Source: Nocardia farcinica (GTDB taxonomy: Bacteria > Actinomycetota > Actinomycetes > Mycobacteriales > Mycobacteriaceae). From it: a stretch of 64,000 bases of DNA. Under the pieces are notes generated by a model, which was not told the DNA's origin, made no database searches, and saw only the letters and a program-made list of their open reading frames with translations. Of the stretch, positions 42,876 to 52,243 are shown in pieces. The stretch covers positions 1,922,001 through 1,986,000 of the forward strand of contig NZ_LN868938.1 in assembly GCF_001182745.1 (NCBI RefSeq), written 5' to 3'. Each line of letters opens with the position of its first letter. The first letter of the stretch is position 1. The position numbers and the translations under genes are program-made.

Positions 42876-43343
42876 TCACTGCTGGGACACGGCCGGACCC
42901 GGCCACCGGAAGGTGCGCATGTCGTCGGCCACGCCGAGATCGAGCCAGCCCCGGCGGCGGAAGAAGGCGAGGGCGGGCAGGTTCGCCAGGTCGACGTAGG
43001 CGCGCCACCCCGCGGCCGGCGGGTGACCTGGCCAGCCGAGCGCGGCCTCGAGCGCGAGGGTGGCCAGGCCCTGGCGGCGACGGCCGGGGTCGACGGCGAG
43101 CGCGGTGACGGTGTGGTCGTTTTCGGCGTGGCCGTCGGCCCACACGCAGCCGATCGAGGCGACGGGGGCGCCGTCGAGTGCCACGACGAGTTCGACGCCG
43201 GTGTCGTCGGCGAGCACGTGGTCGAGCCACTCCTGATCGAGGGGGCCGAGCTGTTCGTTCAGTGTCTCGTCCGCGTACCACGCCGACAGCCACGGCCAGT
43301 CGGCGCGGGTGAACTCTCGCACGGTCGGATGCGCTGCCCGCAT
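42876..43343 (-). CDS. GNAT-family N-acetyltransferase
   Basis: A 155-residue GNAT protein: 'VREFTRADWPWLSAWYADETLNEQLGPL' at the start, acetyl-CoA binding motif 'VTALAVDPGRRRQGLATLALEAAL' (about 90-113, R/Q-x-x-G-x-G/A type) and 'ANLPALAFFRRRGW' near the end. It acetylates an unknown amine. It begins 11 bp downstream of the frameshifted ABC ATPase gene and may be the last gene of the cobalamin-riboswitch operon, though its role there is unclear. Confidence 0.85.
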   Translation of the reverse strand: MRAAHPTVREFTRADWPWLSAWYADETLNEQLGPLDQEWLDHVLADDTGVELVVALDGAPVASIGCVWADGHAENDHTVTALAVDPGRRRQGLATLALEAALGWPGHPPAAGWRAYVDLANLPALAFFRRRGWLDLGVADDMRTFRWPGPAVSQQ

Positions 43344-43353
43344 GCCTCGTACT

Positions 43354-44840
43354 CTATGTGCCGCCCTGCCCGGGCGGAGATTCGGCGGCGAGCAGATCGG
43401 CCAGCAGGGGCGTCGTCGGCTGCGCGAGCAGGCGGGCGGGCGGGCCGAGATCGACCAGGCGGCCCGCGTCGACGAGCGCGACACGGTCGGCGCGGTCGAG
43501 TTGGCCGGGGAGGTCGTGGCCGATCGCGACGATCGCGGCGCCGGTGCGTCGGCGGTAGGCGTCGAGGTGGCGGTGGATGCGCGCCGCGGTGGGTTCGTCC
43601 AGCGCGGTGGTGATCTCGTCGCACAGCAGGACGCGGGGCCGGGCCAGCAGGGCGCGGGCCAGGGCGGCGCGCTGGAGTTGACCGCCGGACAGTCCGGCCG
43701 GGCGGCGCAGCAGCTGCTCGGGGCGAGGCCGAGGTCGGCGAGGGTGTCGGCGGCCTCGGCGCGGGCGGCGTCGCGGGCGAGCCCGCGCAGGCGGACCGCG
43801 GTCGCGGCGACCTGGTCGAGCACCGGGCGGCGGGGGTCGAAGGAGGACGCCGACTCCTGCCACACGTACTGCACCTGCGCGATCTGCGCCCGAGAGCGCC
43901 TGCGCAGCACCGGCAACGGCTGGTCGTCGAGCAGCACCGCGCCGTGCCGCGGGGCGACCAGCCCGGCCATGCAGCGGGCGATGGTGGATTTGCCCGCACC
44001 GGAGACGCCGAGGATCGCCAGCAGTTCCCCGGCCCGCACCGCGAGGTCGATCTCGTGCAGGATCCGGCGCCGATGCAGGGTCACCGTGACTCCGCGCAGC
44101 CGCAGCACCGGGGCGGACGGCGCCGCCGTGGGCTTCCCGCCGGGCTCGGACGCCACCGGCTCGGGCGGCAGCTCCTCGACGATCCGGCCGCCGTGCACAT
44201 ACAGCGTCCGGTCCCCCGCCCGCTCGGCCACCGGATCGTGGGTGACGAGCAGGATCGCCGCGCCCTGCCCGCGCAGGGTCGCCAGGCTGCGGAGCAACGC
44301 CGCCCGCGCGAGCGGGTCGAGCCCGACGGTCGGCTCGTCGATCACCAGCACGTCCGGCCGCACCGCCAGCACCTGGGCCAATGCCAGGCGCGCCCGCTCG
44401 CCGCCGGAGAACTCGAACGGGTAGCGCCGCAAGACGGCGTCACGATCGGCATCGGCCACGTCGAAGGCGGCGGTCGCCAGGATCTGCGCGACGCGGGCGC
44501 GCCGCTGCGCCCGGGGCAGGCGCGGCCGTTCCAACCCGACGAGTTCGTGCAGTGCCGCGCCGACCCGGCGCGCCGGGTTGAGCGTGGCGGCGGCGTTCTG
44601 CGGGAGATACCCGACGCGGATCTCGCCGCGGTGCCGGATGTCCCCGGTGAGCTGCACGCCGGGCTGCCGCACCCCGGCCACCGCCGCGGCGATCGTCGTC
44701 TTGCCGGCGCCCGAGGGCCCGAACAGGGTGACGATCCGGCCCGCGGGCAGGGCGAAGCCGATGTCGTCGAGGATCGTCGCCGCCCCCGCGCGGGCGCCGA
44801 GCCCACGCACCTCGATCAACGGTTCGGCGACGCGGGTCAT
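43354..44840 (-). pseudogene. Double ABC ATPase (OppDF-like fusion) with a one-base frameshift
   Basis: Two nucleotide-binding domains in one gene. NBD1: Walker A 'GPSGAGKTT', signature 'FSGGERARLALAQVLA', Walker B 'VLVIDEPTVGLD'. NBD2: Walker A 'GVSGAGKST', Q-loop 'VWQESASSFDP', then 'TLADLGLAP' in one frame, after which the reading continues as 'EQLLRRPAGLSGGQLQRAALARALL' and 'VLLCDEITTALDEPTAARI' in the next frame to a TAG at 43354. The break is at a run of four G (C on the coding strand) at 43720-43723; one extra C restores a 495-residue protein. As given, the protein would lose NBD2's signature and Walker B. It could be a real inactivation or a homopolymer sequence error. It overlaps the OppC-like permease start by 4 bp. 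Confidence 0.82.
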
Positions 44841-45661
44841 GCCGATTTCCCCGTTCGCACGGCGGCGCGCACCGCGAGCGTGCGCGGATCGGCCAGCAGG
44901 TCGTCGCACAGCAGGTTGATGCCGACGATCAACGCCACGATCAGCCCGGCGGGCAGCGCCACCGCCCACGGCGCGGTGGTGAGCGCGTCCTTGTTCGCCG
45001 CCACCGACACCGCCCAGTCGGTGGAGGTGGTGTCGAACCCGAGACCGAGGAAGTTCGCGGACGCGAGGAAGTAGACCGCGACGGTGAACCGCAACGCCAT
45101 ATCGGCGGCCACCGGCCTGGCCATCTCGCGCGCGGCGTAGCGGCCGTAGCGGTACGCGCGGGATTCGCCCTGCATCCGCAGCGCGTCCATGACGGGGCCG
45201 TGCACCACCGAGCGGGCGGCCATCCGCACGAACCGGGCCGTCGGGGCGACCAGTGCCAGTGCCACCGCCGCCGCGATGGCGATCTCGGATCCGCGGGTTC
45301 GGATGGCGGCCACCATGATGATCAGCAACGAGGGCAGGCACAGCAGCACGTCGATCGGCCGCATCAGCAGCTCGTCCAGCCAGGTCCGGTCGGTCGCCGC
45401 GGCGGCCACGCCGATCAGGAAGCCCACCAGGTAGGCGAGCAACACCGTCGACACCGCGACCAGCAGGAAGGTGCGCCCGCCGGACAGCGCCGCGGCGAGC
45501 ACGTCCCGGCCGAGACGGTCGGTGCCGAACGGCGACCACACCGACGGCCCGAACGGCGCCTGCCGGGTGCGCGGCGCGCGGTCGGCCAGCACCGGCCCGG
45601 CCAGGGCGACCAGCACCGGAATCGCCACCAGCGTGCCGGCGAGAGCGCGACGCGGGCTCAT
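44837..45661 (-). CDS. ABC importer permease, OppC/DppC type
   Basis: A 274-residue permease with an N-terminal helix, then 'HxFGTDxxGRD'-like 'SPFGTDRLGRDVLAAALSGGRTFLLVA' (about 43-69), the hallmark of OppC/DppC/NikC proteins, and about five more helices. The EAA-like loop is 'RTRGSEIAIAAAVALALVAPTARFVRMAARSVVHGPVMDALRMQGES'. It overlaps the OppB-like and ATPase genes by 4 bp each. It is part of a peptide/nickel-family importer under a cobalamin riboswitch. Confidence 0.9.
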   Translation of the reverse strand: MSPRRALAGTLVAIPVLVALAGPVLADRAPRTRQAPFGPSVWSPFGTDRLGRDVLAAALSGGRTFLLVAVSTVLLAYLVGFLIGVAAAATDRTWLDELLMRPIDVLLCLPSLLIIMVAAIRTRGSEIAIAAAVALALVAPTARFVRMAARSVVHGPVMDALRMQGESRAYRYGRYAAREMARPVAADMALRFTVAVYFLASANFLGLGFDTTSTDWAVSVAANKDALTTAPWAVALPAGLIVALIVGINLLCDDLLADPRTLAVRAAVRTGKSA

Positions 45662-46620
45662 CCGCGCCTGCCCTCGGCCGACCGCGGCACCATCCGCTCC
45701 CCGAGCACGTCGATCACCAGGTTCAGCACGATCGCCGCCGTGCCGGTGATCGCCACGATCGCCAGGACCACCGGCTCGTCCCGGTTGCCGATCGCCCCGA
45801 TCAGCTCCGACGCCAGACCGGGCACCACGAACACCGCCTCGACGATCAGCACGCCCGACAGCAGCCCGTCGCCGGTGCGGCCGAGCTCCTGCATCGCCGG
45901 CGCCAGCGCGTTCGGCGCGATGTGGCGGGCCAGCAGCGACAGCCGCCCCACGCCGAGCCGCCGGGCCTGCGCGATGTAGGGCTCGTGCAGCACGTCGATC
46001 ACCCCGGCCCGCACCAACCGCACGAGCGGGGCGGCCACCCGCGCGACGATCACGATCAACGGCAACACCAGGTACTCCGGGTGCCGGAGCACGGTGTCGG
46101 CATCGGCGCCGAGAAACGTCGCGGGCAGCAGATCCAGATCGATGGCCACGTAGCTCACCAGCAGCACCGCGAGCACGAAATCCGGAACGGAGTCGAAGCC
46201 GATGCTGACCGTGGTGATCGCGCGGTCCCGTCGCGAGCCGGGATGCAGCCCGGCGGCGAATCCGGCGACGACGACCACCGGCACCAGCACGGCCAGTGCC
46301 AGCACGGCCAGCACGGCGGAGGTGCGCAGCGGCCCGGCGACGAGGTCGCTCACGCGCGCACCGCTGGCGTAGGAGGTGCCGAAATCGCCGGTGGCGGCGT
46401 TACCCAGCCAGGTCAGGAAGCGCTGCACCGGCGCGACGTCGAGGCCGAGCAGTTCCCGCGCCACCGCCCGCTGATCCTCGCCGAGGACGTCGTTGCTCTG
46501 CACGTCGGCGGCGTCGCCGGGCATCAGCAACGACAGCCCGAACACCAGGGCCAGCAGGATGCCCAGCTGAAGCACCCCGATCCCGGTGCGGCGCAGGACG
46601 AATCGGGCGAACGGCGGCAC
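45658..46620 (-). CDS. ABC importer permease, OppB/DppB type
   Basis: A 320-residue permease: N-terminal helix 'RFVLRRTGIGVLQLGILLALVFGLSLLMPGDAA', the periplasmic loop with 'YASGARVSDLVAGPLRTSAVLAVLALAVLVP' and EAA loop 'VIDVLHEPYIAQARRLGVGRLSLLARHIAPNAL' (about 208-240), all standard for OppB/NikB. GTG start 3 bp after the methyltransferase stop. It forms the translocation pore with the OppC-like subunit. Confidence 0.9.
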   Translation of the reverse strand: MPPFARFVLRRTGIGVLQLGILLALVFGLSLLMPGDAADVQSNDVLGEDQRAVARELLGLDVAPVQRFLTWLGNAATGDFGTSYASGARVSDLVAGPLRTSAVLAVLALAVLVPVVVVAGFAAGLHPGSRRDRAITTVSIGFDSVPDFVLAVLLVSYVAIDLDLLPATFLGADADTVLRHPEYLVLPLIVIVARVAAPLVRLVRAGVIDVLHEPYIAQARRLGVGRLSLLARHIAPNALAPAMQELGRTGDGLLSGVLIVEAVFVVPGLASELIGAIGNRDEPVVLAIVAITGTAAIVLNLVIDVLGERMVPRSAEGRRG

Positions 46621-46623
46621 CGG

Positions 46624-47391
46624 CTACCGGATCCCGACGACGACACGGTCGTCGCCGTACTGCCACACGATGCCCGCCTCGGCGAAACCCTCCGCCCGCG
46701 CGAACTCGACGTAGTCGTGCACGCTCGGCCGGTCGTGCACGGTGTGCTCGAATCCGCCGTCGCGCAGCCGCACCAGCTCGGCCAGTTCCGGCGCCGCCGC
46801 CACCGCCGCCCACCATGCCGCCCAGTCCTCGGCGGCGGCCGTCCCGACCCGCTCGGCGCGCCGCCGCGTCAGCGCCGCCCCCAGCGTGTCCAGGCGGGGG
46901 CCGCGTTCGCCTTCGTAGAGGTGGTCGCCGTTGACGAACACCCCGCCCGGGGCCAGCATGTCCGCGCAGGCACCGATCAGCGCGCGCAGCGGTTCCCGGT
47001 TCATCCAGTGCAGCGCGGTGGTGCTGACGAACGCGTCCGGTGCCCGGTCCAGCTCCAGCCGGGCGGGCCAATCCGGTTCCCGCAGATCGGCATCGACGGT
47101 GCGGAACCGCGACGAGCCCAGGGTGCGTTCGGCCAGCGCCAACAGCAGCGGGTCGGCGTCCACGCCCACGACCGTCGCCTCGGGGAAGCGGACGAGCAGC
47201 CGATCCGACAGCGTGCCCGGCCCGACACCGAGATCGACGATCAGCGGATCCGGCCGCCGCACGATCTCGGCGAGCACATCGCCGATCACCTCGAACCGCT
47301 GCTCGCGGTCGGGCATGTAGTGCTCCTGCTGACGGTCCCAGCGCCGCACCCAGTACCGGGCCCGCTCGATGTCCAGTTCGCTGGTGGTCAT
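46624..47391 (-). CDS. SAM-dependent methyltransferase inside the ABC importer operon
   Basis: A 255-residue class I methyltransferase: motif I 'PLIVDLGVGPGTLSDRLL' (about 53-70), 'VVGVDADPLLLALAE' (about 79), 'FVSTTALHWMNREPLRALI' (about 128) and 'LAPGGVFVNGDHLYEGE'. It is placed between the binding-protein gene (4-bp overlap) and the permease gene (3-bp gap), so it is made with the transporter. It may methylate the transported compound, such as a corrinoid or a metallophore (inference). I do not recognise a specific subfamily. Confidence 0.85.
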   Translation of the reverse strand: MTTSELDIERARYWVRRWDRQQEHYMPDREQRFEVIGDVLAEIVRRPDPLIVDLGVGPGTLSDRLLVRFPEATVVGVDADPLLLALAERTLGSSRFRTVDADLREPDWPARLELDRAPDAFVSTTALHWMNREPLRALIGACADMLAPGGVFVNGDHLYEGERGPRLDTLGAALTRRRAERVGTAAAEDWAAWWAAVAAAPELAELVRLRDGGFEHTVHDRPSVHDYVEFARAEGFAEAGIVWQYGDDRVVVGIR

Positions 47392-48926
47392 CGCGCGGTC
47401 ACCCCGTCGAACCTGGCCCAGCCGTGCGAGTTCGGCACGGCGGCGGGAACGTCGCGGAAGCCGGACCTGGCCGCGCTGTGCCACAGGGTACTGGCGAAGA
47501 ACACGAATCCTCCTCGGTCGTGCACTATCTCGTGCATCGTGCGATAGATCGCCGCGCGACCTTCGGTGGCCGCGGTGGCCTGGGCGCGGACGTAGAGGGC
47601 GTCGAACTCGGGATCGGCGAACCGGGTGCGGTTCTGGGGCGCGTCGGTCAGCAGGCGCGAGGCGAAATGGTTGGGGATCGGCAGCGGGCCGGACTGGCCC
47701 ATGGTGAGCGCACCGGTCTGCATCGAGTCGGTGTAGTAGGTGTCCTTGGAACCGATCACCACCTCGACGTGCACCCCGCACGCGGCGGCCTGCTCGGCGA
47801 ACAACCGGGCCGCTTCCACGAATCCGTGCGCGACCGGTGCGGTGAACAGATCGAACCGCAGGTCACGAACCCCGGCGCGGTCGAGCAGCCTGCGCGCTTC
47901 GTCGGGATCGTAGCGGTGCGGCTCCAGTTCGGCGTAGTACTGGTAGCCCCGGCCGAAGACGTCGCCGGCCACCTCGCCCTGCCCTTCCAGCGCGACCTTC
48001 ACCATCTCCTCGCGGTCCACCATCCGCATCAGCGCGCGCCGCACGTCGGGATTGTCGAACGGCGGCCGGTCGGTCTTCATGGCGAAGAAGTAGATACCGC
48101 TGCCGGGTGTCGAGGTGAGCTCCACGCCGCGGTCACCGCTCAGCACACGGGAGGCGGCGGGGCCGAGATTGTCGGCGAAATCGACCTGTCCGCTGCGCAG
48201 CGCGTTGAGCCGCGCGTCCGCCTCCGCGCTGACGATGCGCAGCTCACCGATGGCGGGCGCGCCGTCCCAGTAGTGCTCGTTGCGGGTCGCGACGAATTGC
48301 CGTCCCGGCTCGAAGGATCGGAACACGAACGGCCCGGTGCCCACCGGCCGGTCGAAATCCTGCGCGCCCGCGGGCACGATCTTGGTCCCGTACGCGGACA
48401 GGGCGATCAGGAAGTCGAAGGCGGGGCGGCGCAACGCGATCTCGACGGTGCGGTCGTCCACCGCGCGGCACGCGGGCAGGTCCACCTCCGTCAGCGAGGA
48501 CGCCGCCACGAACGGGCGGCGTTGCGGCGGGCCGAGCACCCGCGCCAGCGTGGACAGCACATCGTCGGCGACGAACGCCCGCCCGTCGTGCCACCGCGCC
48601 TCGCGCAGGGTGATCCGCCAGCGGGTGCCGTCGGCGTTCGGTTCGGCCCCGGCGGCCAGGCGCGGGATCGGCGTCATCGTCTCGTCGACCTCGAACAAGC
48701 CGTCGTAGACCGACTTCATCCGCGCCTCGTCGATGAACAGCGTGTTCACCCCGGGATCGATGCCCTCCCCCGCCCCCGACCCCTGGAACGCGGCGGTGAA
48801 CACGTCGGTGTCGACGCCGGCCGTCGATCGCCCACCACACCCGGCCACCAGCGCCCCCGCGCCCAACGCGCTGCCCACCAGGAAGGCGCGCCGCCCCAAC
48901 CTGCCCCGCGGTGGTTCGTGCTCCAT
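47388..48926 (-). CDS. ABC importer substrate-binding lipoprotein (peptide/nickel family)
   Basis: A 512-residue family 5 solute-binding protein. The N-terminus has both a twin-arginine pair (R12-R13) and a lipobox 'LVAGC' (lipidation at C30). The family signature appears as 'VYDGLFEVDETMTPIPRLAAG', then 'WRITLREARWHDGRAFVADDVLSTLARVLGP' and 'FDNPDVRRALMRMVDREEMVKVALEGQG'. Related proteins bind peptides, nickel or nickel/cobalt chelates, or haem. A cobalamin riboswitch in its leader implies a cobalt- or corrinoid-related substrate. The ATG follows GGGAGGCGAGG. It is the first gene of the operon. Confidence 0.92.
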   Translation of the reverse strand: MEHEPPRGRLGRRAFLVGSALGAGALVAGCGGRSTAGVDTDVFTAAFQGSGAGEGIDPGVNTLFIDEARMKSVYDGLFEVDETMTPIPRLAAGAEPNADGTRWRITLREARWHDGRAFVADDVLSTLARVLGPPQRRPFVAASSLTEVDLPACRAVDDRTVEIALRRPAFDFLIALSAYGTKIVPAGAQDFDRPVGTGPFVFRSFEPGRQFVATRNEHYWDGAPAIGELRIVSAEADARLNALRSGQVDFADNLGPAASRVLSGDRGVELTSTPGSGIYFFAMKTDRPPFDNPDVRRALMRMVDREEMVKVALEGQGEVAGDVFGRGYQYYAELEPHRYDPDEARRLLDRAGVRDLRFDLFTAPVAHGFVEAARLFAEQAAACGVHVEVVIGSKDTYYTDSMQTGALTMGQSGPLPIPNHFASRLLTDAPQNRTRFADPEFDALYVRAQATAATEGRAAIYRTMHEIVHDRGGFVFFASTLWHSAARSGFRDVPAAVPNSHGWARFDGVTAR

Positions 48927-48989
48927 CCTCGCCTCCCATCCCGTGCGACGCACGCGATGCGGACGCGAAACAAGCCTTTGCCAGGCTCA

Positions 48990-49139
48990 TTCGGCGCGCC
49001 GACCAAAACCCACGTGGCCACGACCGTTTCGTCGAACAGCGGCACCGCGGGTATCTGGCTTCGGCTCACCACGAGCCTCACAGTTGCGGGACAGCCCCGG
49101 ACTCCCACCGGTCTTCCCCACGGGCCGCCGCCAATCATA
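48990..49139 (-). promoter_or_regulatory. Cobalamin riboswitch with upstream promoter
   Basis: Read on the minus strand, the leader contains in order TATGAT (-10, 49139-49134), GGGGAAGACCGGTGGGAGTC, the B12 box CCCGCAACTGTG (49090-49079), then GAAGCCAGATACCCGC (about 49063-49048). This is the conserved core order of cobalamin riboswitches. It ends about 60 bp before the binding-protein start. The intervening AGCCT/AGGCT hairpin followed by TTGTTT (about 48985-48965), or pairing near the ribosome binding site, could be the expression platform. Binding of adenosylcobalamin would switch the importer operon off. Confidence 0.88.
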
Positions 49140-49322
49140 AGCACGACGGGGGGCTCGGTGGTGAGCTACGAATTCCCGCCCCGTCCGCCCTCGTAGCGCC
49201 CGCTGGGCCTGCCGCGGTCGCCACCTCACCCGGATGAGCGGCCCACCGGCACGACGAGGTGGTCCGGACGGAGCGCGACCGCCCCGGCGACGCCGGGATC
49301 GACGCACCCCTCCGCTCGAATG

Positions 49323-50600
49323 TCAGGGAATGTGCAGTGGCGGGCAGGAGGGGAAGACGACGGGCAGGGCGGCGAGGGCGCGGTGGAAGGGGCCGGGGCG
49401 CCGGCGGAGGTCCTCGGCGGGGACGGCGAGCTGGATTTCGGGGAGGGCGTCGAAGAGTTGGTCGATGGCGTTCTGGACGGTGACATAGGCGACGGAGCGG
49501 GCGGGGCAGGCGTGCGGGCCGGTGCTCCACGCCAGGTGGGAGCGGTTGCCGTGGCTGCTGCCGCCGGGGGTGTCGGCGCCGCGGATCTCGGGGTCGTTGT
49601 TACAGGCGGCCAGGCTGATGACGACGGGCTGGTCGGCCGGTAGCCAGACGCCGTCGACGGTGATCGGCTGGCGCGGGTAGGTGGTGCAGAAGTTGGCCAT
49701 CGGCGGGTCGTCGAAGAGCACTTCGTCGAGGGCATCGATGGTGGACAGGTTGGTGAGCACGTCGCCGAAGCGGAACCGGTCGTCGGTGATCATCAGCAGC
49801 AGCGCGTTGGTGATGAGGTTGCGCTGCGCCTCGAAACCCGCACCGTAGAAGCTCATCAGCTGGGCGAAGACCTCCACGTCGTCGAGCTGGGCCGGGTGCT
49901 GGACCAGCCGCGAGGTGACGTCGTCGCCGGGGTGTTCCCGTTTGAGCCGGATGAGTTCGAGCAGTGCCTCTTTCAGCATCGGCATCGCCTGGGCGCTCTT
50001 GACGGTGTCGAAGCGCGCGGCCATGCCCGCCGCGACCCGGCGGCCGATGTCCTCGGGGCAGCCGACGATCTGGTTGAGCACCTCGAGCACCAGCGGGAAG
50101 GCGTACTGGGTCACCAGGTCGGCCTGCCCGGCCCGGCAGAAGGTGTTGATCAGGGTGATGGCGATCTTCTCGACCATCGGGTAGATCGATTGGACGTCGA
50201 TGGCGTCGATGGCGGCCGCGGACGCGCTGCGGTAGCGCGCGTGCACGGGCCCGTCGTTGTTGCGGGCGGCGGGGAGCCAGGCCATCATCGGTAGCACGGG
50301 GCAGTTCTCCGGCACGGTCTTCTGCCAGGCGCGCGGATCGGCCGGGAAATGATTGGGGTCGTTGAGGATTCGCACCGCGGTGGAGTAGCCGATCACCAGG
50401 GTGGCCGGCACGCCGGGGGCCAGCTCGACCGGCGCCAGCGAGCCGTACCGGCGGCGCATCTCGCGGTAGGCCAGGTGCGGGTCGGCGACGAATTCCGCGG
50501 TGTAGAGCGGGATCCGCTCCTCGGTGTGGCCGGCCGGGCCGTGTTGGACGGGGCATACCCCCGGCGCCGCGGCGCCGGTCGGGAAGTGCGGTGTAGCCAA
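49323..50600 (-). CDS. Conservon-type cytochrome P450 lacking the ExxR arginine
   Basis: A 425-residue P450 resembling CYP157-like proteins encoded with actinobacterial conservons. The haem loop is 'LAWSTGPHACPARSVAYV' with the Cys ligand after 'GPHA'. The I-helix region 'LMSFYGAGFEAQRNLITNALLLMI' lacks the usual acid-Thr pair. The K-helix motif reads 'DEVLFDDPPMANF', so the ExxR arginine is Phe. TTG at 50600 with GGAG 8 bp upstream is the suggested start; ATG at 50648 is an alternative. No conservon kinase, roadblock or GTPase genes are adjacent. Catalytic competence is uncertain. Confidence 0.85.
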   Translation of the reverse strand: MATPHFPTGAAAPGVCPVQHGPAGHTEERIPLYTAEFVADPHLAYREMRRRYGSLAPVELAPGVPATLVIGYSTAVRILNDPNHFPADPRAWQKTVPENCPVLPMMAWLPAARNNDGPVHARYRSASAAAIDAIDVQSIYPMVEKIAITLINTFCRAGQADLVTQYAFPLVLEVLNQIVGCPEDIGRRVAAGMAARFDTVKSAQAMPMLKEALLELIRLKREHPGDDVTSRLVQHPAQLDDVEVFAQLMSFYGAGFEAQRNLITNALLLMITDDRFRFGDVLTNLSTIDALDEVLFDDPPMANFCTTYPRQPITVDGVWLPADQPVVISLAACNNDPEIRGADTPGGSSHGNRSHLAWSTGPHACPARSVAYVTVQNAIDQLFDALPEIQLAVPAEDLRRRPGPFHRALAALPVVFPSCPPLHIP

Positions 50601-50667
50601 AGACGTGACTCCAGACGATGGAACAGTGTTCGACAAGGGGTGACGCATGCAGCTGTGAGCGCGTGCC

Positions 50668-50718
50668 ACGGTGCGCACATGCCACGGTGCACACGCAACG
50701 GTGCACACCCAACGGTGC
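50668..50718. repeat. Four ACGGTGC direct repeats
   Basis: ACGGTGC occurs at 50668, 50684, 50698 and 50712 with spacings of 16, 14 and 14 bp, each preceded by CA- or CC-rich bases. The array lies just upstream of the P450 gene and could be a cooperative regulator site. Confidence 0.7.
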
Positions 50719-50727
50719 GCATGACGT

Positions 50728-50759
50728 GCCTGTGACATGACCCGCCTGTGACATGACCC
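50728..50759. repeat. Perfect 16-bp tandem duplication
   Basis: GCCTGTGACATGACCC occurs twice without a gap, directly after the ACGGTGC array. The unit contains TGTGACA, and the repeats together make up most of the non-coding DNA upstream of the P450 gene. Confidence 0.85.
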
Positions 50760-50878
50760 TGATGGCCTACGTGCCCACCGTGGATCGTAGCCACACCGCT
50801 GCCCGCTCGCGCGCGGAACGACCACGGGGGCGCGGACTTCCGGCGGCGACGGACGTGTCCGTCCGTCGCCTGCCGACC

Positions 50879-52243
50879 CTACGTCGTGGCCGACGGAGCG
50901 GTGTCGGCGGGCTCCCGGACCGGAGGCTGTTCTCCGTTGGGCCCGAACACCATTCCGCGTTTCCACGCCCCGCGTTCGAACAGTCGTTGCAGCGGTGTGG
51001 CGAGCACGGTGGTGACGGTGGTCATCAGGGCCAGCACGGTGTAGAGCGCGGGGGTGATCAGCCCACTGGACAGGCCGATGCCGAGCAGGACCAGTTCCAT
51101 CAATCCGCGGGCGTTGGCGAGGGCGCCCATCGCTCCCGCCTCCCGCCAGCCCATGCCCTGTGCGCGCGCGACCAGCCCGACCGCGCCGAACTTGCTCGCG
51201 AACGACACCACCAGCACCAGCGCGGTGACCGCGAGCACGTTCGGTGTGAAGATCAGGCTCAGCTCGGTGCTGAGGCCGGTGTGGATGAAGAAGGCGGGCA
51301 GCAGCAGATACGCCACCAGCGGCTCGAAGGCGCGGCGCAGCCCGGCCAGCAGCTCACCGCGGGGCATCACGACCCCGGCGACGAACGCGCCGAGCACCGA
51401 GTGGATGCCGACGAAGTCGGTGAACGCCGCCGCGGCCAGGACCACGAGCAGCACCGCCACCACGGGCGCCACCGGGAGCCCGCCGGTGGTCTCGTGGTCG
51501 CCGCGCCGAGGTGTCCAGGTCTCCAGCCGGGTCAGCAAACGACGGCCCGCGGTTGCCATGACGGCCAGATACAGCGCCCCACCGGCCAGCGCCAGGTACG
51601 CACCACCCGCGGAGTCCTGCGCGGTGGCCACGACGACGGCCAGCAGCAGCCACGCGCACAGGTCGTCCACGGCCGCGCAGGCCAGCGCCATGGTGCCGAG
51701 CCGGGTGCCGGTCAGCCCCGAGTCGTGGACGATCCAGGCCAGGATCGGGAACGCGGTGACCGCGACGGCCGCCGCCAGAAACAACGCGCCCTGCCAGGGC
51801 GAGACCGCGTCGGTGAAGTAGCCGCCCGCACCGACCAGCCACCAGCCGACCGACCCGCCGAGCACCATCGGCACCAGCACGCCGGTGGCCGAGGTGAGCC
51901 CGGCCTGGCGCAGATGGCCGCCGAGGATGGCGCGATCGAACGATGCGCCGACCAGGAACATGTACAGCACCAGCCCGAGCTGGCCGACGACCTGGATGGC
52001 CGTGGCGTTCGGATGCGGGACGGTGACGCCGTCGAGCACCACGTCGGTCGGGAAGAGCCGCTGCTGGAGCTCCGGCCACGCCGCGCCGAGCAGCGAGGGC
52101 CCGAGCAGGAACCCGGCGATCATGATCGCGACCACCTGCACCTGGCCGAGCCTGCGCAGCACCGGCCACAGCAACCGGTAGGCCAGCAGGATCACGACCA
52201 GTTGCAGGAAGAACAGCGTCGAGATCGCCAACGGTGAAGGCAT
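50879..52243 (-). CDS. Cation/proton antiporter (CPA2, KefB/NapA-like)
   Basis: A 454-residue membrane protein with about 12-13 helices. Family landmarks are 'VAIMIAGFLLGPSLLG' (about 38-53), 'GLVLYMFLVGASFD' (about 88), the substrate-site region 'LACAAVDDLCAWLLLAVV' (about 185-202, two Asp as in electrogenic antiporters) and 'GALANARGLMELVLLGIGL' (about 372-390). There is no C-terminal KTN domain, so nucleotide gating is unlikely. It is expected to exchange Na+ or K+ for H+. It stands alone, upstream of the halogenase operon on the map and on the same strand. Confidence 0.9.
   Translation of the reverse strand: MPSPLAISTLFFLQLVVILLAYRLLWPVLRRLGQVQVVAIMIAGFLLGPSLLGAAWPELQQRLFPTDVVLDGVTVPHPNATAIQVVGQLGLVLYMFLVGASFDRAILGGHLRQAGLTSATGVLVPMVLGGSVGWWLVGAGGYFTDAVSPWQGALFLAAAVAVTAFPILAWIVHDSGLTGTRLGTMALACAAVDDLCAWLLLAVVVATAQDSAGGAYLALAGGALYLAVMATAGRRLLTRLETWTPRRGDHETTGGLPVAPVVAVLLVVLAAAAFTDFVGIHSVLGAFVAGVVMPRGELLAGLRRAFEPLVAYLLLPAFFIHTGLSTELSLIFTPNVLAVTALVLVVSFASKFGAVGLVARAQGMGWREAGAMGALANARGLMELVLLGIGLSSGLITPALYTVLALMTTVTTVLATPLQRLFERGAWKRGMVFGPNGEQPPVREPADTAPSATT

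What the first reader, a model, noticed from the sequence alone, without database searches (positions are those of the whole stretch)
42876..49139. Cobalamin-riboswitch-controlled Opp-type importer with an embedded methyltransferase
The leader has the GGGGAA..CCGGTGGGAGTC, CCCGCAACTGTG and GAAGCCAG..ACCCGC elements of a cobalamin riboswitch, but the operon encodes a peptide/nickel-type ABC importer plus a SAM methyltransferase rather than BtuFCD or CbiMNQO. It may import cobalt-chelate, a corrinoid or its precursor, with the methyltransferase modifying the cargo. I know of no described system with this makeup.
Basis: partly seen in the sequence, partly recalled or inferred. Interest (0 to 1): 0.78.

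Follow-up and report, generated by a model that had tools for sequence, protein, structure and literature searches.

The report
B12-riboswitch importer operon with methyltransferase
A Nocardia-like bacterium carries a conserved operon, headed by a vitamin-B12-sensing RNA, that encodes a nickel/peptide-family importer with a built-in methyltransferase; it most likely brings in cobalt held by a small carrier molecule for making B12, and what the methyltransferase does is an open, testable question.

Summary
A cobalamin riboswitch (RF00174, 41.1 bits) at 49140-49028 (-) heads an operon: binding protein, methyltransferase, two permeases, dual ATPase. The same order with a riboswitch occurs in 25 further genomes of eight genera, methyltransferase always second. 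B12-riboswitch NikA-type importers are already on record; I found no report of the embedded methyltransferase.

Cargo: most likely chelated cobalt. The strongest support is from relatives: in 15 of 17 loci with binding proteins 38-41% identical, a riboswitch lies upstream, and in 6 of these it heads an operon that also encodes an SbnA-like enzyme, a DUF364 protein and an MFS exporter, which looks like a B12-controlled cobalt-metallophore system. A corrinoid cargo is not excluded.

The methyltransferase model is nearest to BelI/CysG, metal-dependent carboxylate O-methyltransferases, though their His-His-Asp site is not kept. It may methylate the imported ligand and free the metal, or tailor it; both are inference. 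A homologue stands back to back with riboswitch-led importers in five further genomes, but most of its family is not seen near importers, and one relative has lost the enzyme's middle. In this assembly the ATPase frame is broken; the window's GNAT gene has no sequence counterpart in the relatives searched.

The parts
49028..49140 (-). Cobalamin (B12) riboswitch aptamer, RF00174
   Evidence: Rfam 41.1 bits, E 5.8e-7; R1 91.5 bits (in the training set); covariation on 15 sequences
48927..49027 (-). Leader between aptamer and start codon, probable expression platform; Shine-Dalgarno-like GGGAGGCGAGG before the ATG
   Evidence: Conserved leader in 10 sequences; no terminator or promoter match; control at translation is inferred
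47388..48926 (-). Substrate-binding lipoprotein (RR...GC leader), family 5 / SBP_bac_5
   Evidence: PF00496 247.6 bits; best NCBIfam hit Opp5A_nikA 117.7 bits, cut-off 600
46624..47391 (-). Class I SAM methyltransferase, second gene of the operon
   Evidence: PF13649 48.2 bits; AlphaFold pLDDT 91.5; nearest structures BelI/CysG; second in 24 of 24 whole-operon loci
45658..46620 (-). Permease B (OppB/NikB type)
   Evidence: BPD_transp_1 88.2 bits; best NCBIfam hit Opp2B, below cut-off
44837..45661 (-). Permease C (OppC/NikC type)
   Evidence: BPD_transp_1 61.8 bits; best NCBIfam hit Opp2C, below cut-off
43354..44840 (-). Dual ATPase; frame of the second domain broken at about 43720 in this assembly
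   Evidence: ABC_tran in both frames; one ORF with two signature motifs in 23 of 23 relatives
42876..43343 (-). GNAT acetyltransferase downstream; probably not part of the conserved operon
   Evidence: PF00583 45.6 bits; no match in 120 related loci

Best explanation
A B12-repressed importer for chelated cobalt. When corrinoid is scarce the riboswitch lets the operon be expressed. The lipoprotein captures a cobalt complex, the permeases and the dual ATPase bring it in, and the cobalt goes to corrin synthesis. The carrier is probably an amino-acid-type metallophore, made by the cell or by neighbours: relatives in Pseudonocardiaceae carry B12-riboswitch-led operons that join SbnA-like and DUF364 genes and an MFS exporter to the same importer family. 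The methyltransferase, made in step with the importer, most likely methylates a carboxylate of the imported ligand, either to weaken its hold on the metal or to remodel the ligand. Shown: riboswitch, operon, conservation, gene neighbourhoods. Inferred: cobalt and chelate as cargo. Hypothesis: substrate and purpose of the methyltransferase.
Against: No binding or uptake data. By sequence the SBP is as near to dipeptide and haem binders as to NikA. CntM and NAS families are absent from the own genome; whether it has SbnA-like/DUF364 genes was not searched. The window's operon has no exporter or synthesis gene. Clade C importers (4 of 4 Nocardia loci) have a riboswitch but no homologue of the methyltransferase, nor do the 6 metallophore-like operons. 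In G029 the methyltransferase has lost its middle while importer and riboswitch remain. Of 50 more distant loci only L168 and L186 matched an importer directly beside it (most were not read gene by gene). The second ATPase piece taken alone hits PotA best. CobN is in 150 of 150 genomes of the genus, so it does not discriminate. The BelI/CysG metal site is not kept.
Confidence: 0.55

Rival explanations
1. The importer carries a corrinoid or a breakdown product such as cobinamide, and the methyltransferase modifies it.
For: Direct fit to a B12 riboswitch. Haem-binding protein A is the best single-sequence PDB match of the SBP. Some homologues of the methyltransferase lie near corrinoid or Btu-class genes: L051 beside CbtA, CbtB and a tetrapyrrole methylase, L168 and L052 beside riboswitch-led FecCD-class importers.
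Against: Relatives join the importer to SbnA-like, DUF364 and MFS genes, a metallophore setting. The methyltransferase is near carboxylate O-methyltransferases.
Confidence: 0.17
2. A methionine-sparing importer that brings in peptides or methylated compounds when B12-dependent methionine synthesis fails.
For: Family 5 SBPs include many peptide binders. In L225 a riboswitch-led clade C importer stands next to riboswitch-led metE.
Against: The Asp that anchors peptides in DppA is Pro in 14 of 14. Best family hits are nickel. Relatives carry metallophore-type genes.
Confidence: 0.08
3. A zinc importer that feeds zinc-dependent MetE made when B12 is short (MetE's zinc need is recalled).
For: metE is in the regulon. 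A Zur-like box lies before the importer of L096, and two lie beside a Fur-family gene in L107; L106 has Fur, AlaRS and deformylase genes.
Against: A palindrome scan of 23 loci found nothing. L106 also has a 92-bit cobalamin riboswitch 1.6 kb from the SBP, pointing away from it. L137 joins the operon to cobalt genes.
Confidence: 0.08
4. In this strain the operon is decaying and not functional, whatever its ancestral role (not exclusive of the others).
For: Frame break in the second ATPase domain, seen in none of 23 relatives. Decay elsewhere: SBP in L118, methyltransferase in L048.
Against: The other operon genes and the riboswitch are intact; a single frame break may be an assembly error.
Confidence: 0.3

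Closest known systems
B12-riboswitch NikA/NikABCDE-type importers (C. tetani, D. hafniense predicted; S. ovata nikA aptamer tested)
   Same: NikA-family importer under a cobalamin riboswitch; cobalt inferred (PMC2667541, PMC9600662, passages)
   Different: No embedded methyltransferase in the passages I saw; Firmicutes (recalled); the SBP here is far below NikA cut-offs
CbtJKL of Sinorhizobium meliloti
   Same: ABC cobalt importer under an AdoCbl riboswitch (PMC7689651, passage)
   Different: CbtJ is BtuF-like, another SBP class
Opine metallophore (Cnt) systems
   Same: Opp- or FecCD-type importers; some clusters carry PF13649 methyltransferases and GNAT enzymes of unknown role (PMC7438024, passages and section 8); a homologue of this methyltransferase stands near a CntM gene (L052)
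   Different: No CntM or NAS family in the own genome
SbnA/DUF364/MFS/Opp operons of Pseudonocardiaceae-type relatives (described here)
   Same: Same importer family; 6 are headed by a cobalamin riboswitch
   Different: Carry synthesis and export genes and lack this methyltransferase
BelI / CysG O-methyltransferases
   Different: Second metal-binding His is Trp in 13 of 13; substrate unknown
Trans-aconitate 2-methyltransferase
   Same: Same superfamily; best NCBIfam hit
   Different: 48.1 bits against a cut-off of 320

Membership tests
Cobalamin riboswitch (RF00174) | Score above gathering cut-off | tested here: met
   41.1 against 31.5
Cobalamin riboswitch (RF00174) | Helices with compensatory changes | tested here: met
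   10 pairs changed on both sides; 0 of 500 shuffles reach the covariation score
Cobalamin riboswitch (RF00174) | Binds a corrinoid and changes expression | not testable with these tools
   Needs in-line probing or a reporter
Opp/Nik-type ABC importer | Family 5 SBP, two BPD_transp permeases, two ATPase domains | tested here: met
   PF00496, PF00528 twice, PF00005 twice; second ATPase domain frame-broken here
NikA equivalogs | Score above NCBIfam cut-off | tested here: not met
   117.7 against 600; 98.4 against 393
Peptide importer (DppA type) | Asp that binds the peptide amino end (role recalled) | tested here: not met
   Pro in 14 of 14
BtuFCD corrinoid importer | PF01497 SBP and FecCD permease | tested here: not met
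   SBP is PF00496, permeases PF00528
CbiMNQO cobalt ECF transporter | CbiM (PF01891) | tested here: not met
   No hit among the operon proteins
Staphylopine-type Cnt system | CntM (PF10100) in the genome | tested here: not met
   None in G000; 1 of 99 genomes searched has it, G100
SbnA/DUF364 metallophore operon type | SbnA-like, DUF364 and MFS genes joined to the importer | tested here: not met
   The seven genes read around the window's operon are none of these apart from an EmrB-type MFS gene of another family; not searched elsewhere in the genome
BelI/CysG O-methyltransferases | Same fold | tested here: met
BelI/CysG O-methyltransferases | His-His-Asp metal site | tested here: not met
   First His kept, second Trp in 13 of 13; the Asp could not be placed
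Trans-aconitate 2-methyltransferase | Score above NCBIfam cut-off | tested here: not met
   48.1 against 320

The most novel reading that the evidence does not exclude
A family of B12-riboswitch-governed cobalt-metallophore systems in actinobacteria: some members make, export and re-import a dedicated cobalt carrier (SbnA-like, DUF364, MFS, Opp), while the type in this window imports the loaded carrier and uses its own methyltransferase to methylate a metal-binding carboxylate and unload the cobalt, a counterpart to the reductases and esterases of siderophore uptake.
Probability: 0.22. Interest if true: 0.85.

Novelty: new variant of a known kind. Interest (0 to 1): 0.6.

Why it matters
No dedicated cobalt carrier (cobaltophore) turned up in my literature search (0 uses of that word in the 20 papers listed). 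B12-controlled operons that join metallophore-type synthesis, export and import genes would make that question directly testable, and the methyltransferase fixed in second place in 24 of 24 whole-operon loci asks how a metal is freed from its carrier after uptake. It also bears on the unexplained methyltransferases reported in opine-metallophore clusters.

Tried and rejected
Rejected or weakened. (1) My first reading that SBPs 39-48% identical lack a riboswitch and a methyltransferase was wrong: the first loci ended about 2 kb upstream. The 38-41% group mostly has a riboswitch. In the 42-48% group the 12-kb loci L091-L101 have none (Rfam, 0 of 11) and R1 found none in 16 further upstream stretches (R1 is weak on long riboswitches, 25.1 bits in L052 where Rfam gives 97); 12 of 15 of these have DUF364-like, PALP and MFS genes, two that I checked have a class I methyltransferase of another kind between MFS and SBP (L102, L258), and 11 of 13 (L091-L103) have a GNAT of another type after the ATPases. 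(2) The methyltransferase family as a general metal-transport marker: see evidence against; some distant members sit beside a CGNR zinc-finger gene instead (L049, L054 by Pfam; L139, L140, L178 by eye). (3) CobN co-occurrence: 150 of 150 in the genus. The DtxR-like box in L186 was recognised by eye. (5) ECF genes in 7 Nonomuraea loci: about 4 kb away, one genus. (6) CntK in L052: by eye only, Pfam found no family. (7) SBP structure model: never obtained. (8) No SBP tree was built; clades A, B, C are labels by identity and context. (9) Foreign origin was not tested.

Gene calls in relatives come from a GC3-based script (on); names there without a Pfam or NCBIfam call rest on similarity to my reference set or on reading the sequence. 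The methyltransferase tree left out L048 and L109. The search kept 80 of 538 loci. In 'upstream' means same strand and within 4 kb of the SBP.

Literature searches for the combination. No title or abstract start in the lists (at most 20 papers each; alone had 1,757 hits) describes a B12-riboswitch Opp-type importer with a methyltransferase; the library holds open-licence papers only, and Rodionov 2006 was not held.

Full report
1. Observation. The minus strand carries a cobalamin riboswitch at 49140-49028 (RF00174, 41.1 bits, cut-off 31.5, E 5.8e-7), the only Rfam match at gathering score in the window. About 100 nt downstream begins an operon: family 5 substrate-binding lipoprotein (48926-47388), class I SAM methyltransferase (47391-46624), two permeases (46620-45658, 45661-44837) and a fused dual ATPase (44840-43354), then a GNAT gene (43343-42876). 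Three of four junctions inside the operon overlap by ATGA; at the fourth, stop and start are 3 bases apart.

2. Conservation. Of 148 genomes searched with the methyltransferase, 12 same-genus genomes besides the own have a copy at 74% identity or more and G029 has a damaged one. Of these 13, 11 have the whole operon on a contig that reaches upstream, and 11 of 11 have the riboswitch; L038 is cut off and L036 has the methyltransferase without the importer. A scan of one genome per species kept 80 of 538 loci: 24 hold the whole operon with the methyltransferase second, 4 (Pseudonocardia) hold it back to back with a different Opp operon, 2 hold it without the importer, 50 are more distant. A riboswitch lies upstream in 23 of the 23 whole-operon loci that reach that far (22 by R1; L142 by Rfam on its copy L090). 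Rfam, which was not trained here, also finds it in 6 of 7 whole-operon loci outside Nocardia; the seventh, L137, scores 25.8 bits, below cut-off. Together 25 genomes besides the window.

3. The aptamer. Over 15 sequences 96.9% of cells are paired, 10 pairs show changes on both sides, and none of 500 shuffles reaches the covariation score. The leader is conserved, has no terminator match and ends in a Shine-Dalgarno-like stretch; control at translation is my inference.

4. The regulon of this genome. Five riboswitch matches: metE, this operon, an FecCD/PF01497 importer, cobN and cbtBA; the last two are below the Rfam cut-off but significant in a one-genome search. The SBP of the FecCD-class importer scores best as a putative F420-0 binder, 165 bits against a cut-off of 392, and 34 bits as BtuF. 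CobN is in 20 of 20 operon-bearing genomes but also in 150 of 150 of the genus. CbtA is missing from 4 of the 20 (G003, G004, G014, G494).

5. The cargo. The best NCBIfam hit of SBP, both permeases and the ATPase is a nickel family each time, all below cut-off: kinship, not membership. PDB comparison by sequence does not separate nickel, dipeptide and haem binders. The residue aligned to DppA's ligand-anchoring Asp (408 by my count; role recalled) is Pro414 in 14 of 14, inside the invariant stretch MGQSGPL. In L137 the operon runs on into a FhuF_C protein and then CbtB and CbtA, with an R1-only riboswitch before cbtB (53.2 bits; no Rfam match there). FhuF-type enzymes reduce ferric chelates (general knowledge), so a cobalt(III) chelate would fit.

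6. Relatives. For SBPs 38-41% identical I examined 17 loci (L108, L109, L237-L251). A riboswitch over the Rfam cut-off lies upstream on the same strand in 15: within 400 bases of the matched SBP start in 9 (L109, L240, L242-L247, L249) and 3.4-3.7 kb upstream in 6 (L108, L237, L238, L239, L241, L250), where a DUF364-like gene, a PALP gene and an MFS gene lie between (in L108 the fetched stretch begins inside the PALP gene, so its DUF364 gene was not seen). L248 has one 4.7 kb downstream instead and L251 none nearby. DUF364 passes its Pfam cut-off in L237 (29.2 against 23) and falls just short in L239 (20.2); the PALP scores best as SbnA, 250 against a cut-off of 350. These look like B12-controlled metallophore operons, which makes chelated cobalt the best reading for the whole family. 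SBPs 42-48% identical belong to similar operons (DUF364-like, PALP and MFS upstream in 12 of 15 stretches; an ATP-grasp gene in L262) in which neither Rfam (0 of 11) nor R1 (16 stretches) found a riboswitch; R1 is a weak test for long riboswitches. SBPs 34-35% identical in four Nocardia genomes (clade C) have riboswitches of 79-82 bits and no homologue of the methyltransferase; N. takedensis, one of them, keeps a lone operon-type methyltransferase elsewhere (L115).

8. Limits. The dual ATPase frame breaks at about 43720 here, unlike 23 of 23 relatives. In G029 the methyltransferase has lost its middle in frame and in L118 the SBP is reduced to a 180-aa ORF: the system is accessory and sometimes decays.

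9. Known or new. B12-riboswitch NikA-type importers and CbtJKL are on record (passages). New, as far as the open-licence library shows, are the actinobacterial operon type with the methyltransferase in second place and the riboswitch-led SbnA/DUF364/MFS/Opp operons. Verdict: real, conserved, a new variant of a known kind, with a bold but testable reading.

Noticed in passing
L237, L238, L239, L241, L250, L108 (genomes G315, G386, G265, G269, G430, G293): Cobalamin-riboswitch-led operons with DUF364-like (not seen in the cut L108), SbnA-like PALP, MFS and Opp importer genes: candidate cobalt-metallophore systems.
   Followed up: partly
L252-L256, L258-L264 with L091-L095, L097-L103: Similar DUF364-like/PALP/MFS/Opp operons without a detected cobalamin riboswitch; where checked (L102, L258) another class I methyltransferase sits between MFS and SBP.
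   Followed up: partly
window 43354-44840 (-), break near 43720: The reading frame of the second ATPase domain is broken here; 23 of 23 relatives have one ORF with both signature motifs.
   Followed up: partly
L223:4319-4469, L224:3721-3908, L225:3604-3780, L226:10222-10398: A second type of B12-riboswitch-led Opp importer in Nocardia (SBP 34-35% identical), without this methyltransferase; in L225 riboswitch-led metE follows.
   Followed up: partly
L186:7820-14206 (Brachybacterium timonense): Methyltransferase homologue first in an Opp-type operon with a DtxR-like box upstream (by eye) and a DtxR-family gene at the end.
   Followed up: partly
L052:8998-17206 (G100): Staphylopine dehydrogenase gene, FecB, FecC, ATPase and methyltransferase homologue on one strand, next to a B12-riboswitch-led FecCD-class operon.
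   Followed up: partly
L036:8998-16282 (G052): Nearest methyltransferase in the tree (80% identical) has no Opp operon beside it; a Fur-like gene (by eye), CbiM (Pfam) and CbiO/CbiQ-like genes and a HypX-like gene (by eye) lie upstream.
   Followed up: partly
L137:11984-13874 (Marmoricola endophyticus): FhuF_C protein overlapping the end of the ATPase gene, then an R1-only riboswitch and CbtB-CbtA.
   Followed up: partly
L048:9001-9280 (G029): Methyltransferase shortened in frame to about 100 residues while riboswitch and importer are kept.
   Followed up: yes
L049:7337-7996, L054:9795-10316, also L139, L140, L178: Distant methyltransferase homologues beside an ABATE/CGNR zinc-finger gene (the first two by Pfam, the others by eye).
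   Followed up: no
window 49323-50966 (-): Cytochrome-P450-like ORF upstream of the riboswitch that scores just below the Pfam cut-off; not examined further.
   Followed up: no
L136:12816-14901 (Saccharopolyspora sp. HNM0983): A CobW-domain GTPase gene (NCBIfam: ribosome hibernation factor-recruiting GTPase MRF) and a small ribosomal-protein-like gene (by eye) just downstream of the operon.
   Followed up: no
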